DNA of 64,000 nucleotides from Deltaproteobacteria bacterium (GTDB lineage: Bacteria > Bdellovibrionota > JACOXK01). The notes beneath the pieces are model-generated. The model saw only the letters and a list, made by a program, of their open reading frames with translations. It made no database searches and was not told the DNA's origin. Shown one piece after another: positions 16,777 through 55,892 of the stretch; position 1 is the stretch's first letter, and every line of letters starts with the position of its first letter. The stretch lies in contig JACPKQ010000005.1 of the NCBI GenBank assembly GCA_016186995.1, forward strand, positions 1 through 64,000. Direction: 5' to 3'. A program made the position numbers and the translations under genes.

Positions 16777-18436
16777 GGATGAGTCCAACCATAACGATAA
16801 GGGGTGTTGGCAAAATACTTTTTCCATTGGTTTCATTATAAAAACTTACATTCCCACTCACAACCGGCACATTCATCTTGCGGCAGGCCTCACTCATTCC
16901 TAAAACAGTTTGCTCAAACTGCCACATAATTTCTGGATTTTCTGGACTTCCAAAATTAAGACAATCGGTGAGCGCTAGAGGAATAGCCCCCACACTGGCC
17001 AATTTTTCAACGGCTTTCAACACAATATATTTGCCTCCTTCAAATGGATTTAAATAAGTCAGGTATTCTGCTGAACCCATGGCCAGAGCTAAAATACTCC
17101 CGTTTTCCCTTACCCGGATTAAAGGTACGTCATGATAACAAACAAGTGTGTTTGTACCCACCATAGAATCATACTGCTCCATAATGGAGGCTTTTGTCAT
17201 CGCGAGGTTTTCGGTAGAAAACCGTGGCGATCTCATCACCTTCGGTGATGGGATTGCTTCGCTACCGCTCGCAATGACAGATGATGAAGGCGTATAGCTT
17301 TTTCGAGGGCGTTCATAAAGAGGAGCACCTGAAACAAGAGGCTCTACAGGAATTTCTCCAATCTCCTCACCTTTCCATTCAATTTTTACATAAGGAGAAT
17401 CAATAACCTCTCCTATAACAACAGCATCTAAATCCCATTTTGAAAAAAGTTTTTTTGTTTCTTCTTCAAATCCTTTTTTTACACAAAGAAGCATACGTTC
17501 TTGTGATTCACTCATCATCACTTCTACTGGCGTCATATTTTTTGCTCTTAAAGGAACCTTTGAAAGATTGATTTTAACGCCACTTTGAGCCCGATCTGCC
17601 ATCTCAAATGTTGAGCACGTAAGCCCTGCAGCACCCATGTCTTGAATACCAACAATGTAATCTGTTTGCATAGCTTCAAGACAAGCCTCTAATAGAAGTT
17701 TCTCCATAAAAGGATCACCCACTTGAACCGTAGGTTTTTTCTCATAAGCTTCGTCATCAAATTCAGCTGAGGCCATAATAGCCCCGCCAATACCATCGCG
17801 CCCTGTTTTAGCACCTACATACATAATAGAGTTTCCAATACCCGAAGCATTGCCTAAAAAGATTTTATCTTTTTTGACAATTCCAATATTAAAGGCATTC
17901 ACAAGTGGGTTATGTTCATAAGAAGGATCAAAAAATACATCGGTTCCAACTGTTGGAACACCCATGCAATTTCCATAATCGCCAATCCCCTTCACAACCC
18001 TTGAAATAAGATATTTTGTTTTTGCACTCTCTGGGTTTCCAAATCGAAGCATGTTAAGGGAAGCAACGGGTCTTGCACCCATTGTAAAAACATCTCTTAA
18101 GATACCCCCCACCCCTGTGGCAGCGCCTTGATAAGGCTCTAAATAAGAGGGGTGATTATGACTTTCCATTTTAAAACAAGCAGCCCACCCACCCCCAATA
18201 TCGACGATGCCTGCGTTTTCTCCGGGCCCTTGAATCACGTTTGGCCCCGTGGTTGGAAAATTTTTTAGAATATTTTTAGAGCTTTTATAAGAACAATGTT
18301 CGCTCCACATAGCAGAAAAAAGAGATGTTTCTAAATCTGTGGGGTCTCTTTTAAGGTAATCTTTAATAAGGTCATACTCATATTCAGTGAGGCCCAATTT
18401 TTTAGCTAAAGCTAGATTCCCGCCCAGATTTTTCAT
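16769..18436 (-). CDS. purL: Phosphoribosylformylglycinamidine synthase II PurL, lacking its last domain
   Basis: Converts FGAR to FGAM with ATP and PurQ-derived ammonia. The family motifs are clear: [23 protein letters not shown], the glycine-rich [18 protein letters not shown], and [15 protein letters not shown]. At 555 residues, including about 30 repeat-encoded ones, it ends at [13 protein letters not shown]. In homologues this point opens the final AIRS C-terminal domain, so roughly 150-180 residues are missing. The stop overlaps the purF start by eight bases, as if a deletion had joined the two genes. Activity without that domain would be surprising. The PurQ start overlap (ATGA) is normal. 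Confidence 0.88.
17196..17279. repeat. In-frame palindromic element in purL
   Basis: Starts TGTCATCGCGAGG and ends CTCGCAATGACA, with nested GGTTTTCGGTAGAAAACC and TCATCACCTTCGGTGATG. Read as [20 protein letters not shown] and onward. Confidence 0.85.
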
Positions 18437-35638: not shown

Positions 35639-35778
35639 ACTAGATCCCGGATATTGCTAACGCAATTCCGGGATGACATTTTTTCTGTCATTCTGAGCAA
35701 CGCGAAGAATATACTCTCGTATGCAAATTATACCCTTCACTGCGTTCAGGGTGACAGGAGTGCGTTCAGGGTGACATT
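35639..35778. repeat. Palindromic repeat cluster
   Basis: Starts with GATCCCGGATATTGCTAACG and ATTCCGGGATGAC, then TGTCATTCTGAGCAACGCGA, then two copies of CTGCGTTCAGGGTGACA or GTGCGTTCAGGGTGACA. It fills the gap between convergent genes. Confidence 0.85.
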
Positions 35779-40985: not shown

Positions 40986-42434
40986 TTATAATTTTGAAAA
41001 AACATTTTTAATAACCTCAAAATCTTTTTCTTGAATCGTTTTAAAATCAAGAACAAAATGATTTTGAATGATTCTTCCTAAAATAGAGGGGGTTTTATTT
41101 CTAAAAAACTTAGCTAAATCTAAAGCCTTAAGTTTCGGATGAAAAAACATGAGACCAAAACTCTCAATATTTTCATCTGGTAAGCTTCCACCCCCACCTT
41201 GAGCTTTTGTTTCAATGATTTTGAAATCACAAGACTGGATCCCGGATAATGCGGAGCCTGCCCCCGACTCTGATCGGGGGCATTTCCGGGATGACAAATG
41301 GGATCTAGGAATGACAGGGGGTGAGCTTATCATTTTTAAAAATCTCTCTATCTTTTCTTTTGTTTGAAACCCTGTTTCACAAAGCATTTTTAACGTAGGA
41401 ATTTTTTCTTGAAAATCATCCTCGCAATACAGTTTTAAAAACTCTCCTAAAATAAAAAGCCCTATCTTGTCCATTCGAAGGGCTCGAACAAGTGGGTTTT
41501 TCTTCATTTGAGAAATGACTTTTATGGATCCTAAAAGAATACCCGCCTGAGGCCCACCTAAAAGCTTATCCCCACTTAAACTTATGATATCTACCCCTGT
41601 TTGAAGGCATTGTTCAACTGTAGGTTCCTCTCTATAAGAAACAACCTGTCCAGAGCCTAAATTAAACATAACAGGTATGTTTTTTGATTTTCCTAAGGCC
41701 ACTAATGATTCTAAAGAAACAGAATGTGTAAACCCACTCTGTTTAAAATTGCTTTGATGAACTTTGAGTAAAAGTGCCGTATTACTATGAATAGCCTTTT
41801 CATAATCTGAAATTTTTGTTTTGTTTGTGGTACCTACCTCTTTAAGCAAAACACCACTTGCTTTCATAACATCAGGTATTCGAAAGCTTCCACCTATTTC
41901 AACAAGCTCTCCTCGAGAAACAATAACTTCTTTTTCTTGAGCCAAAGTGTTTAAAGCCACAAGAACAGAGGCTGCATTATTATTGACAACCAAAGCATCT
42001 TCACAGTGAAAGAGTGCACATAAAATTTCTTCAACATAGCGATGTCTCTCTCCACGCTTTCCAGTTTCGATATCAAGTTCTAAATCACAGTAAGATTCAA
42101 AAAAAGGTTTTGCTTTTTCCCATAAAGGCCCCGGCAAAAGTGCACGCCCTAAGTTGGTATGCAACAAAACACCCGTTCCATTCACAACAGGTGAATAATT
42201 AAAATCTTTCCATTTTTGAGAAAACCACTGCATCTTTTTACAAAGCACATCTTTGATGCATTGAGGTGTGTCCCCAATGCATAGAATTTGTTCCCGTACT
42301 AATTCAAGTATCTTTCTTGCGCTGTGTTTTTGAAGTTTGAGAGGTAAATGTGAAAAAGTATTTTTAAATTCTTCACTGTTTATAAACTCATTGATACTTG
42401 GAAGTTCTTTTAAGTTTTTTTGTTTTTCTTTCAT
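40986..42434 (-). CDS. selA: L-seryl-tRNA(Sec) selenium transferase SelA
   Basis: 482 residues. This PLP enzyme converts Ser-tRNA(Sec) to Sec-tRNA(Sec) using selenophosphate. [30 protein letters not shown] and the PLP lysine Lys290 in [14 protein letters not shown] are intact. About 30 residues near 375-405 ([20 protein letters not shown]...) are repeat-encoded. Its start overlaps the hutU stop by ATGA. It implies selenocysteine use, but no selB, selD, selC or UGA-containing selenoprotein was found here. Confidence 0.92.
41235..41317. repeat. In-frame palindromic element in selA
   Basis: GGATCCCGGATAATGCGG...CATTTCCGGGATGAC with inner CCCCCGACTCTGATCGGGGG. It is translated in frame near the SelA C-terminus. 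Confidence 0.85.
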
Positions 42435-44185
42435 GATAGAAAGGGAATGTTAATGTTTTTTTCTTTCGCTACTTTTTTAGCTTCTTCATATCCTGCATCG
42501 GCATGACGTATGACCCCCATACCTGGATCACTTGTCAGAACTCTTTCTAAACGTTTTTCTGCCTCTTTTGTTCCATCCGCCACAATCACCATACCTGCAT
42601 GAAGAGAATACCCCATCCCAACCCCCCCACCATGGTGGAAGGAAACCCAGCTTGCTCCATTCACGGCATTGATGAGCGCATTTAAAATGGGCCAATCAGC
42701 AATAACATCAGAACCATCCTTCATACTTTCTGTTTCACGATAGGGGGAAGCAACACTTCCGCAATCAAGATGGTCTCGGCCAATCACGAGTGGGGCTTTT
42801 ACTTTTTGAGTGCGAACTAATTCATTAAATGTGAGTCCGGCTTTGGCTCGATCACCATATCCTAACCAACAAATACGACTTGGAAGTCCTTGAAACTGAA
42901 CCTTTTCTCTTGCAAGATGAAGCCATCTTAAAAGTGATTTATTTTCTGGAAATAATTTTTTAAGCGCTTCATCTGTTGCATAAATATCTTCGGGGTCTCC
43001 AGAAAGTGCCACCCATCTAAAAGGACCCTGTCCTTCACAAAATAAAGGACGAATATAAGCAGGAACAAAACCTGGAAAATCAAATGCATTTTTTAAACCC
43101 TTCTTATACGCTTGCGCGCGAATGTTATTACCGTAATCAAAAACAAAGCTTCCTAGCTTTTGAAAATCAAGCATGGCTTGCACATGGTGCACCATTGATT
43201 CATAACTCATTGCAATATATTTTTCTGGATCAGATGTGCGAAGTTTTAAAGCCTCTTTATAAGAAATACCGCGTGGTACATAGCCATTGAGTTCATCATG
43301 TGCTCCCGTTTGATCTGTCACTAGATCTGGTATTACTTTTCTTTTTGCAAGTTCTGGAAAAACATCCGCTGCATTTCCTAAAAGACCCATGGATACAGCT
43401 TTTTTTTCTTTTTTATATAATTCTATTTTTCGAAGTGCTTCATCTAAGCTTTCTGTCATAAAATCAAGATAACGCGTTTGAAGCCTTCGCTTGATTTTAT
43501 CCACATCAACATCAACCCCTAAGAAACAAGCGCCATTCATTGTTGCCGCAAGGGGCTGAGCTCCACCCATTCCTCCTAAACCAGCTGACAAAATAAATTT
43601 ACCTTTTAAATCTCCACCAAAATGTTTTTTCCCTGCACTTGCAAATGTTTCATAAGTTCCTTGCAGAATACCTTGAGTCCCTATGTAGATCCAACTTCCT
43701 GCCGTCATTTGGCCGTACATAATAAGACCTTTTTTTTCTAACTCTCGAAAACATTCCCATGTCGCCCAATGAGGTACTAAATTCGAATTGGCGATAAGAA
43801 CACGAGGTGCATCTTTATGTGATTTTAAAACACCTACAGGTTTTCCTGACTGAACAAGAAGGGTTTCATCATCCTGAAGCGTTTTAAGAGTTTCAATAAT
43901 TTTATCAAAACATTCCCAATTACGAGCTGCTTTTCCAGTACCCCCATAAACGATGAGTTCTTGAGGTTTTTCAGCAACGCCTTCGCTTACATTGTGCATA
44001 AGCATTCTCATGGCCGCTTCTTGCACCCAACCTTTACATGTTAATTGGCTTCCTTTCGGCGGAATGATTTTTCTCACAAAACTATTAGTAGAGGAAAGAA
44101 CTTCTTTTTTCAAGAAACTTAGCGCTCTGTCCCTGTTGCTACATACAACCTTGGTTCTTAAAATGGTTGCTATCTTTCGCTTCAT
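42431..44185 (-). CDS. hutU: Urocanate hydratase HutU
   Basis: 584 residues as read. Converts urocanate to imidazolonepropionate in histidine breakdown. [20 protein letters not shown], the NAD-binding [56 protein letters not shown] and [13 protein letters not shown] are all present. The ATG at 44185 and about 10 codons lie inside a 158-bp repeat element, and homologues begin about 25 residues later, so the true start may be TTG 44113 or another downstream codon. No other hut gene is in the window. Confidence 0.93.
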
Positions 44186-44317
44186 GGCTCACTACACTCG
44201 TCCTACCGGATTCTTCATTAATCCCGTAAGTGCTAAAGCACTGTCCGGGATAAGAGAGTTCTGAATATTTGCAAAGATGGGCTGCGCTTTATTTCCGCTT
44301 CAGATAGCAACCATTTT
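44160..44317. mobile_element. 158-bp inverted-repeat element, copy 1
   Basis: Ends AAAATGGTTGCTATCT at 44160-44175 and AGATAGCAACCATTTT at 44302-44317 are perfect 16-bp inverted repeats. Inside is a hairpin AGTGCTAAAGCACT within ATCCCG...CGGGAT. It has no gene of its own. Copies lie at 45350-45507 and 55734-55892. Confidence 0.85.
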
Positions 44318-44348
44318 TTCACATAGCTTCGAAATAAACCTATAGGGC

Positions 44349-44502
44349 AAAAGATAGGGATAGTGCTTATAGAGGGTCGTGTCGGAAGGTAATCTGGCTT
44401 GGTCCGCATAGTATATGCGGCAGATTACCTGAGACGCGAGGCGCACTTTTTCGCAGGAAAAAAGTGACGCCGTACCCGAGGGAAGTACTATCCCTATCTT
44501 TT
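44349..44502. other. Long-stem branched structure 1
   Basis: AAAAGATAGGGATAGT at 44349-44364 pairs perfectly with 44487-44502. Inside, AGGTAATCTG/CAGATTACCT (44387-44396 with 44421-44430) encloses CCGCATA/TATGCGG, and a second arm CACTTTTTC/GAAAAAAGTG lies at 44444-44466. The layout is a closed multi-branch structure that would fold in RNA or as a cruciform. No known RNA family recognised. CAAGAACTTAAGTA follows at 44513. Confidence 0.7.
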
Positions 44503-44649
44503 GTGACCACTTCAAGAACTTAAGTACTTCATCGTAATAAGAAAAAGACGCGTTGAGTCATGAAAAGACTTTAACCTATTGAAATAATTCACTATAAAAA
44601 GATTGTGCTTGAGGTTTTTGTGACATAGAATGTAAAGTTCATAGGCAAT

Positions 44650-45297
44650 ATGAAAGCAAAACTTGCTAAATTTGAGTCTTTTAGTTCACGAAATGCAACC
44701 CACCTTTTAAGAAGGTTGTGGCATTTAGGGTGTTCTCTCTTACTTGCCTATGCTTATTGGGAGTTTTTCACAAAGGAGCAAGCCCTTCTTGTCATGACAA
44801 CACTGGGTACTATTTTTCTTTTAGGTGATAGCTTTCGTTTAAAGTACAAATCACTTAATAAAGCCATTTTTAAAATCATGGGTGGATTTATGCGTAAATC
44901 AGAAATGCAATCCCAATCTGCCATGATGCCTTTTATTCTTTCTCTTTTTATTGTCATAGTTCTCTTTCCAAAACCTGTTGTTATACTTTCTATTCTTTAT
45001 CTAGGGGTTGGAGACCCTGTTGCTTCTATTGTGGGCATTCACTATGGAAACACAAAAATTTTTGGAACGCGTAAAAGTTTAGAGGGTTTAGTTGCCAATT
45101 TCTTTACAACTACCATTATTACTTACTTTGTTTTGTCTGCTTTTGGCCTTGGTGGAAGTTATATTGTTCTTATTTCTCTTATTGGCGGAATAGGTTCTGC
45201 TGTTTCTGAAAGTCTGCCACTGACAACTGACGATAATCTTCATGTACCTATTATTTCAGGCTCTGTCCTCTGGCTTGTGCTCACTCTCCTTCAGTAA
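44650..45297 (+). CDS. CTP-dependent lipid kinase (dolichol/phytol kinase family)
   Basis: 215 residues with about five membrane helices. The family nucleotide motif is clear: GVGDPVASIVGIHYG around 118-132 followed by GTRKSLEGLVANF. Members phosphorylate dolichol, phytol or diacylglycerol with CTP. The substrate cannot be chosen from sequence. It lies alone between two repeat blocks. The ribosome binding site is weak (ATAGGCAAT). Confidence 0.85.
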   Translation: MKAKLAKFESFSSRNATHLLRRLWHLGCSLLLAYAYWEFFTKEQALLVMTTLGTIFLLGDSFRLKYKSLNKAIFKIMGGFMRKSEMQSQSAMMPFILSLFIVIVLFPKPVVILSILYLGVGDPVASIVGIHYGNTKIFGTRKSLEGLVANFFTTTIITYFVLSAFGLGGSYIVLISLIGGIGSAVSESLPLTTDDNLHVPIISGSVLWLVLTLLQ

Positions 45298-45349
45298 TTC
45301 CTAGCAATGCTCAAAAAGCCCAATTCACATCTTTGCAGCTTAGGTTCTT

Positions 45350-45507
45350 AAAATGGTTACTATCTTCCGCTTCATGGCTCGCTACACTTGTCATACCGGA
45401 TTCTTCATTATCCCGTAAGTGCTAAAGCACTGTCCGGGATGAGAGAATTTGGAATTATTATAAACCGTATGCTGCGCTTGACTTCCGCTCCAGATAACAA
45501 CCATTTT
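45350..45507. mobile_element. 158-bp inverted-repeat element, copy 2
   Basis: AAAATGGTTACTATCT at 45350-45365 and AGATAACAACCATTTT at 45492-45507, with the same internal hairpin and near-identical body as copy 1, in the same orientation. Confidence 0.85.
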
Positions 45508-45567
45508 TTCACATAGTTATGAATTATGTCGTGTTTATGAAAGAATCTTAACTCGTGTTCATGTGAA

Positions 45568-45640
45568 GATGGGCTGGAGGTTTTGAAGGGGAGGATCCAC
45601 ACTGGCCGGTGCGAGGCCCCTGAGGAACCTCCAGCCCATC
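45568..45640. other. Long-stem structure 2
   Basis: GATGGGCTGGAGGTT at 45568-45582 pairs perfectly with 45626-45640. Inner arms AGGGG/CCCCT and CAC/GTG continue the stem. It is unrelated in sequence to structure 1 but sits in the same place after an element copy, and is followed directly by the same CAAGAACTTAAGTA at 45640. Confidence 0.7.
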
Positions 45641-45705
45641 AAGAACTTAAGTATCGAAAAAATACCACCCCCAATTCAGAACCAAGGTTGTAAAAAGAGA
45701 AATAC

Positions 45706-45744
45706 TGGATCCCGGATAGCACTTTCGTGCTTCCGGGATGACAG
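45706..45744. repeat. Palindromic element
   Basis: GGATCCCGGATAGCACTTTC then GTGCTTCCGGGATGACAG, a near-perfect hairpin upstream of the 7TM-GAF gene. Confidence 0.85.
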
Positions 45745-55733: not shown

Positions 55734-55892
55734 AAAATGGCTACTATCTTCCGCTTCATGGCTCGCTGTAGTTGTCCCACATGAATTCTTCGTTATCCCG
55801 TAAGTGCTAAAGCACTGTCCGGGATGAGAGTATTCTGAATTATTATAAACCGTATGCTGCGCTTGACTTCCGCTCCAGACAGTAACCATTTT
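55734..55892. mobile_element. 158-bp inverted-repeat element, copy 3
   Basis: AAAATGGCTACTATCT at 55734-55749 and AGACAGTAACCATTTT at 55877-55892 (two mismatches). The body closely matches copies 1 and 2. It is 159 bp. No long-stem structure and no CAAGAACTTAAG follow here. Confidence 0.85.

What the first reader, a model, noticed from the sequence alone, without database searches (positions are those of the whole stretch)
44144..45692. Composite unit: paired 158-bp elements, different long-stem structures, one lipid-kinase gene
Two near-identical 158-bp elements with 16-bp inverted ends are each followed by a different, unusually long-stem structure (outer stems of 16 and 15 perfect base pairs), and each structure is followed by the same CAAGAACTTAAGTA. 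The whole segment is bounded by a perfect 15-bp inverted repeat. Conserved frame with variable structured cargo is what one sees in modular or cassette-like systems, or in structured RNA mobile units. No transposase is present, so mobilisation would be in trans.
Basis: partly seen in the sequence, partly recalled or inferred. Interest (0 to 1): 0.68.

Follow-up and report, generated by a model that had tools for sequence, protein, structure and literature searches.

The report
Conserved caps on interchangeable DNA hairpins
The two long hairpins beside this gene are ordinary copies of a genome-wide family of small palindromic DNA parasites whose tips are conserved but whose long stems differ in nearly every copy yet still pair, and which in related bacteria sit in frame inside housekeeping genes; this bears on how such 'coding palindromes' arise and persist.

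Summary
The reported sequences are real, but the segment is not one cassette. It holds two separate insertions flanking an unrelated gene. The 158-bp element (A), the first structure (B), the second (C) and the linker CAAGAACTTAAG are all genome-wide repeats: about 60 A, 24-27 B, 16-20 C copies, and 24 exact linkers against 0 for a reversed control. The bounding 15-bp inverted repeat is one linker in two orientations.

B belongs to a three-way-junction family (window hit 48.5 bits, E 1e-18) found in all eight genomes of this taxonomic class (6-26 each) and almost none of 31 others searched in the phylum. A and C caps recur in related genera. Caps are conserved; the 20-34 bp stems differ from copy to copy, yet each copy's arms match each other (own partner best in 24 of 25). 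In relatives the elements lie in frame inside LpxB-LpxK, PurL, PabB, SelB, CtaA, a penicillin-binding protein and a kinase. At one orthologous site the arms changed together between species and the head flipped.

Best reading: selfish palindromes of the Rickettsia-palindromic-element kind, their arms copied from each other by replication template switching. What moves them is unknown.

The parts
44146..44159 (+). left linker CAACCTTGGTTCTT, borders element A; same linker family as CAAGAACTTAAG read on the other strand
   Evidence: 20 of 22 A copies with a 5' end carry it
44160..44317 (+). element A, copy 1: hairpin with conserved cap TTCGCTTCATGGCTCGC...GCTGCGCTTTAYTTCCGCT and an inner hairpin ATCCCG...CGGGAT
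   Evidence: R3 hit 177 bits
44348..44503 (+). element B: three-way-junction palindrome; outer stem 44348-44368/44483-44503
   Evidence: head 44370-44493 found by model R2 at 48.5 bits, E 1.2e-18
44513..44526 (+). right linker CAAGAACTTAAGTA of the A-B unit
44650..45297 (+). chromosomal ORF, 215 aa, between the two insertions; not part of the element; no family match
45343..45349 (+). left linker GGTTCTT of the second insertion
45350..45507 (+). element A, copy 2
   Evidence: R3 hit 173 bits
45568..45640 (+). element C: hairpin with conserved cap GGGAGGATCCACAC[C/T]GGGCGGAGGGGCC (this copy has a 2-nt insertion and changes in the cap)
   Evidence: cap exact in 4 of the other 7 genomes of the class
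45640..45653 (+). right linker CAAGAACTTAAGTA of element C
   Evidence: 12 of 13 C copies
45659..45692 (+). 3' half of a D-type hairpin ending in CAGAACCAAGGTTGTA; gives the right arm of the reported 15-bp bounding repeat
   Evidence: 85% to the D query, E 2.5e-4
45705..45742 (+). short palindrome GGATCCCGG...CCGGGATGAC of the wider GTCAT...ATGAC kind

Best explanation
The segment contains two independent insertions (A-B and A-C-half D) of a family of non-autonomous palindromic elements. Each element is a conserved cap (A cap, three-way-junction head of B, C cap) on a long stem. SHOWN: caps are conserved across the genomes of one taxonomic class; stems differ from copy to copy but the two arms of a copy match each other; elements are multi-copy, intergenic in this genome and in several cases in frame inside genes of relatives; at orthologous sites (LpxB-LpxK, PurL) they are present, partly deleted or absent; at LpxB-LpxK the arms differ between three species of one genus while matching within each, and the head is inverted in two of them. 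INFERRED: they are selfish DNA; the arms are created, lengthened and kept complementary when the replication fork switches template at the hairpin and copies one arm or the flanking host sequence onto the other side, while whole units (cap plus inner stem plus linker) are spread by an unknown enzyme or recombination route. In this genome the A-B unit with its linkers was amplified as a block.
For: Multi-copy. Conserved heads with paired changes: B 12 two-sided pairs, C 8, A 5, above shuffles and slides; 22 heads from seven genomes, 13 of 24 pairs with both sides changed. Class-wide distribution: exact pattern in G000 and G002-G007, 0 in the other 361 genomes, 0 reversed controls; model R2 finds 6-26 per genome in all eight class genomes. 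Copy-specific arms: mean self score 39.5 against 11.9 between copies, own partner best in 24 of 25; C and A caps on unrelated perfect stems in G002, G004, G005, G006. In-frame coding copies: PurL, LpxB-LpxK, PBP-PASTA, kinase-PEGA, PabB-type enzyme, CtaA, SelB. Site states: G004 LpxB-LpxK fusion without element, G002 with a 24-nt footprint; PurL full in G002 and G007, partial in G005 and G006. LpxB-LpxK arms within species 18/20, 19/20 and 25/25 identical, between species about 14 of 20. In G002 PurL one arm encodes E-D-I-V, which aligns with Thermus PurL; the other arm lies in residues 378-434, a stretch with no aligned counterpart. Template switching is known to give multi-base compensatory changes, stem extension and inverted loops (PMC8794818); patterns of all three kinds are seen here.
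Against: No mobilising enzyme was identified. Y1 transposase is absent from G000, G003, G005 and G007 although they carry elements; other transposase families were not tested. Non-consensus G-U pairs exceed A-C mismatches on one strand (13:4 in B, 21:9 in A; cells not independent), which could mean that a folded single strand, perhaps RNA, is under selection. Arm formation from host sequence rests on two sites. No target-site duplication or clean empty site at base resolution was obtained.
Confidence: 0.7

Rival explanations
1. The hairpins are functional structured RNAs or cis-regulatory RNA elements; paired changes reflect selection on RNA folding.
For: Strong covariation and z-scores; G-U over A-C asymmetry on one strand; conserved loops such as TCGCAGG.
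Against: Found in frame inside unrelated genes and in both orientations relative to one gene; in this genome placed in divergent (20), same-direction (27) and convergent (7) intergenic regions, not as terminators or leaders; no Rfam match; nested, truncated and footprint copies.
Confidence: 0.12
2. Classical MITEs: the stems are terminal inverted repeats recognised by a transposase supplied in trans.
For: A-B units in G000 share inverted linker ends CTTAAGTTCTTGAAATGG / CCATTTCAAGAACTTAAG and are up to 98% identical, as expected for recent transposition.
Against: In relatives each copy has different arms, so the arms cannot be a fixed transposase site; no target-site duplication seen; no Y1 transposase in half of the genomes.
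Confidence: 0.15
3. Insertion of the cap itself makes the palindrome: the transposition event copies 20-30 bp of flanking target DNA in inverted orientation, giving a cap on an inverted target duplication. (A special form of the best explanation, so its probability overlaps with it.)
For: Arms end sharply at about 20-34 bp and are copy-specific; one arm is native coding sequence in PurL of G002 and probably in LpxB-LpxK of G007.
Against: Only two sites; orthologous comparison shows that arms also change together later, so age and origin are hard to separate.
Confidence: 0.3
4. One reading: a unit bounded by the 15-bp inverted repeat, carrying the gene with two exchangeable structures.
For: The 15-bp inverted repeat is real.
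Against: It is the common linker in two orientations; A-B and C units occur throughout the genome without the gene.
Confidence: 0.03

Closest known systems
Rickettsia palindromic elements (RPE) and Wolbachia palindromic elements
   Same: About 100-150 bp palindromes, multi-copy, in intergenic regions and in frame inside unrelated genes, insertion positions shared or changed among orthologs (PMC3767692, PMC10969869). That the mobiliser is unknown is my own knowledge.
   Different: Three-way-junction head and other caps conserved across genera while stems are copy-specific; the sequences were not compared with RPE families directly.
Template-switch hairpins (Monttinen and Loytynoja, PMC8794818) and quasi-palindrome correction (PMC3820800)
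   Same: Perfect stems, multi-base compensatory changes, stem extension and inverted loops.
   Different: There a mutational process without mobile conserved caps; here conserved caps are dispersed through the genome.
REP/BIME elements with RAYT
   Same: Dispersed hairpins in composite arrays, thought to be moved in trans.
   Different: REPs are 20-40 bp, most with a GTAG or CGTC tag (PMC3733652); here larger, no such common tag, no Y1 transposase in half of the genomes.
BOX elements of pneumococcus and double-hairpin elements of mitochondria
   Same: Modular joined hairpins (own knowledge; double-hairpin elements occur in the papers).
   Different: Not compared by sequence.

Membership tests
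Rickettsia palindromic elements | palindromic repeat of about 100-150 bp in many copies | tested here: met
   elements about 75-200 bp
Rickettsia palindromic elements | in-frame insertion into unrelated protein-coding genes | tested here: met
   in relatives; the A, B and C copies read in this genome are intergenic
Rickettsia palindromic elements | sequence belongs to one of the described RPE families | not tested
   no RPE sequences on hand
Rickettsia palindromic elements | occurs in Rickettsiales | tested here: inconclusive
   genome unnamed; elements nearly confined to one class of eight genomes among the phylum's held genomes
REP/BIME with RAYT | Y1 (RAYT) transposase in the genome | tested here: not met
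   none in G000, G003, G005, G007 (genomes 61-93% complete)
REP/BIME with RAYT | 20-40 bp unit with GTAG or CGTC tag | tested here: not met
   units are about 75-200 bp; no common tag seen in the arrays
MITE | fixed terminal inverted repeats shared by all copies | tested here: inconclusive
   true for A-B in G000, false in relatives
MITE | target-site duplication | not tested
   no base-resolution empty site was obtained
Known Rfam RNA | match to a covariance model at its gathering score | tested here: not met
   window; eight loci, loose threshold, only chance-level hits

The most novel reading that the evidence does not exclude
A class of mobile DNA in which only a folded cap is the heritable unit, and each insertion builds its own stem by copying 20-30 bp of flanking host DNA in inverted orientation, so that every copy is a near-perfect hairpin made partly of its host gene and can sit in frame between protein domains.
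Probability: 0.3. Interest if true: 0.9.

Novelty: new variant of a known kind. Interest (0 to 1): 0.72.

Why it matters
How palindromic elements enter coding genes without breaking them, and what moves them, is still open for Rickettsia palindromic elements. Here caps and arms evolve separately, and there are orthologous sites in full, partial, flipped and empty states. That makes it possible to test whether such palindromes are kept perfect by selection or by template switching during replication. It also warns that compensatory changes alone do not prove a functional RNA.

Tried and rejected
BLAST of B in 59 relatives found nothing outside the own genome; the covariance model found the relatives. 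RAYT was rejected as a general requirement. Transcription terminators were rejected on gene orientation. Rfam at a loose threshold gave only chance-level hits. A GNA-triloop DNA-hairpin signature was considered and dropped, because copies found by the model have other loops such as CCGCTGG. The estimate of one PurL arm used mistyped letters; the identities reported are those.

Full report
WHAT IS THERE. I call the 158-bp element A, the first structure B and the second structure C. A (44160-44317 and 45350-45507) is a hairpin of about 158 bp. B (44348-44503) folds as a 20-bp outer stem closing a three-way junction (MFE -88.3 kcal/mol, z -8.9). C (45568-45640) is one long hairpin (z -4.9). The linker CAAGAACTTAAGTA follows both B and C. 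Between the two insertions lies a 215-aa ORF that has no family match in Pfam or NCBIfam.

NOT ONE UNIT. In the genome that holds the window (1.68 Mb, 30 contigs) A+B gives 51 BLAST matches, C with its tail 45, and AAGAACTTAAGT occurs 24 times exactly with none for the reversed pattern. A covariance model of A finds about 60 copies, counting one strand per place. I read 65 arrays. They are built from several hairpin families, which I call A, B, C, D, E, F, G and K, joined by a few linkers; K replaces the tip of some B and E copies. A carries the linker on its left in 20 of 22 cases, C on its right in 12 of 13, B in 10 of 24; B follows A in 14 of 27. So A-linker, A-B and C-linker are real recurring units, but the 15-bp bounding inverted repeat is only the linker in two orientations: the left one belongs to A, the right one to the remnant of a D hairpin. 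A 98%-identical A-B unit lies on another contig without the gene. In 54 arrays with a gene found on each side, neighbours were divergent in 20, convergent in 7 and same-direction in 27, so the elements are not simply terminators.

STRUCTURE IS KEPT BY PAIRED CHANGES. Among copies in this genome B has 12 base pairs with changes on both sides, C has 8 and A has 5, above shuffles and slid partners. Families E, F and G share one architecture with B: a long outer stem, then a junction with two arms. In E, F and G the first arm carries GCGGGCATGG-hairpin-GAGCGAG and the second is capped by TCGCAGG; B keeps the second cap and has a different first arm.

RELATIVES. A DNA pattern of these motifs was searched in 368 genomes of the phylum. 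It is present in the window's genome (13) and in all six genomes of the sister family f2 (2 to 7 each), in none of the other 361, and the reversed control is 0 everywhere. An alignment of 22 heads from seven genomes shows 13 of 24 pairs with both sides changed. The model built from it (R2) finds 26 heads in the window's genome and 6 to 15 in each of the other seven genomes of the class, including G001, the only other genome of the same family. Outside the class two genomes of family f3 have one each (E 1e-9 and 1e-6), long-stem junctions by eye; other hits are weak. B of the window, which was not used to build R2, is found at 44370-44493 with 48.5 bits, E 1.2e-18; the next window hit has 10.5 bits. 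There is no Rfam match. The C cap GGAGGATCCACAC[CT]GGGCGGAG is exact in four f2 genomes and the A cap is found by its model in G002 and G004.

CAPS CONSERVED, STEMS FREE. In the relatives the caps sit on stems of about 20-34 bp that have nothing in common from copy to copy but pair within each copy; one C copy in G005 has lost its stem. For 25 three-way-junction copies I compared every left arm with every right arm: self score 39.5 on average, others 11.9, own partner ranked first in 24 of 25. Three A copies of G002 share the inner part of the stem and differ, still paired, in the outer part, as if stems had been lengthened into the flanks.

INSIDE GENES. In several relatives the element lies in an open frame between domains: PurL, LpxB-[element]-LpxK, PBP transpeptidase-[element]-PASTA, kinase-[element]-PEGA, the two domains of a PabB/TrpE-type enzyme, CtaA in G001, and, for the A cap, SelB in G002. 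Ten of 24 three-way-junction loci of relatives tested fall in an ORF of at least 250 codons by a mechanical test; one of these (L132) may be spurious. In the window's genome the A, B and C copies read are intergenic, but its PurL carries another kind of palindrome (GTCATTGCGAG...ATGAC, 17196-17278) in frame in the same linker.

SAME SITE, DIFFERENT STATES. LpxB-LpxK: element in G003, G005, G006 and G007; fusion without element in G004; fusion with a 24-nt footprint of the head in G002; separate genes in the window's genome. Within genus g6 the arms differ between species (about 14 of 20 identical) but match within each (18/20, 19/20, 25/25), and the head is in sense orientation in G006 and inverted in G005 and G007. 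PurL: full element in G002 and G007, partial in G005 and G006, none in G004. In G002 PurL the arm next to the second domain encodes E-D-I-V, which aligns with Thermus PurL (3viu); the opposite arm lies in residues 378-434, a stretch with no aligned counterpart there. So one arm is host coding sequence and the other looks like its inverted copy.

MECHANISM. Paired changes alone would suggest RNA function. But the elements lie inside unrelated genes, in both orientations at one gene, the arms follow the local sequence, stems extend into flanks and heads flip. These are the signs that Monttinen and Loytynoja list for template switching in replication: multi-base compensatory changes, stem extension, inverted loops (PMC8794818). 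My reading is therefore selfish palindromes whose arms are made and repaired by template switching. Shown: distribution, conserved caps, copy-specific paired arms, in-frame sites, orthologous states. Inferred: selfish nature, template switching, and movement by an unknown agent. A Y1 transposase is not a general partner: absent from G000, G003, G005 and G007, present in G001, G002, G004 and G006.

COMPARISON. The closest known kind is the Rickettsia palindromic element: 100-150 bp, in frame in genes, insertion positions shared or changed among orthologs (PMC3767692, PMC10969869). I did not have RPE sequences, so sequence membership is untested. It works like an RPE; I do not file it as one. 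The decoupling of conserved caps from free stems across a whole class is what I have not seen described; my literature search covered open-licence papers only.

LIMITS. Most relatives are incomplete draft genomes. Class-wide statements rest on eight genomes. The arm-copy argument rests on two genes. Counts of copies are at the thresholds of each search.

Noticed in passing
window 17196-17278: PurL on the minus strand contains an in-frame palindrome GTCATTGCGAGC...CGCGATGAC in the same interdomain linker where relatives carry the three-way-junction element.
   Followed up: partly
window 41240-41320: The SelA ORF (40986-42434, minus strand) contains an apparent in-frame palindrome of the GTCATCCCGG...CCGGGATCC kind.
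   Followed up: partly
window 8569, 12307, 13250, 13839, 14304, 15374, 19381, 34826, 35668-35687, 40969, 41286, 45733, 52666, 55678, 55915: Many GTCAT...ATGAC sites (GTCATTGCGAG, GTCATCCCGG, GTCATTCTGAG, GTCATTCCCG). Rickettsia RPE-4, -6 and -7 are reported to share the motif ATGAC (PMC3767692), so a link is worth testing.
   Followed up: no
window 55734-55892: A third full copy of element A (180.8 bits with model R3), in the window but outside the finding.
   Followed up: no
G000 contigs C1, C3, C4, C12, C20, C24, C25, C27: Several contigs begin or end inside these repeats, so the true copy number is probably higher than counted.
   Followed up: no
L102, L103, L108, L118, L160, L161: LpxB and LpxK are fused into one ORF in the family f2 genomes but are separate genes in the window's genome.
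   Followed up: partly
L134 (G023), L135 (G008): Single three-way-junction palindromes with long copy-specific stems in another family of the same phylum, with a diverged head.
   Followed up: partly
G000:C10:51370-51459, C24:14466-14554, C20:16721-16808: A further hairpin (TTTTATGAATCATTTTT...) replaces the tip of B and E copies, i.e. tips are exchanged between families.
   Followed up: no
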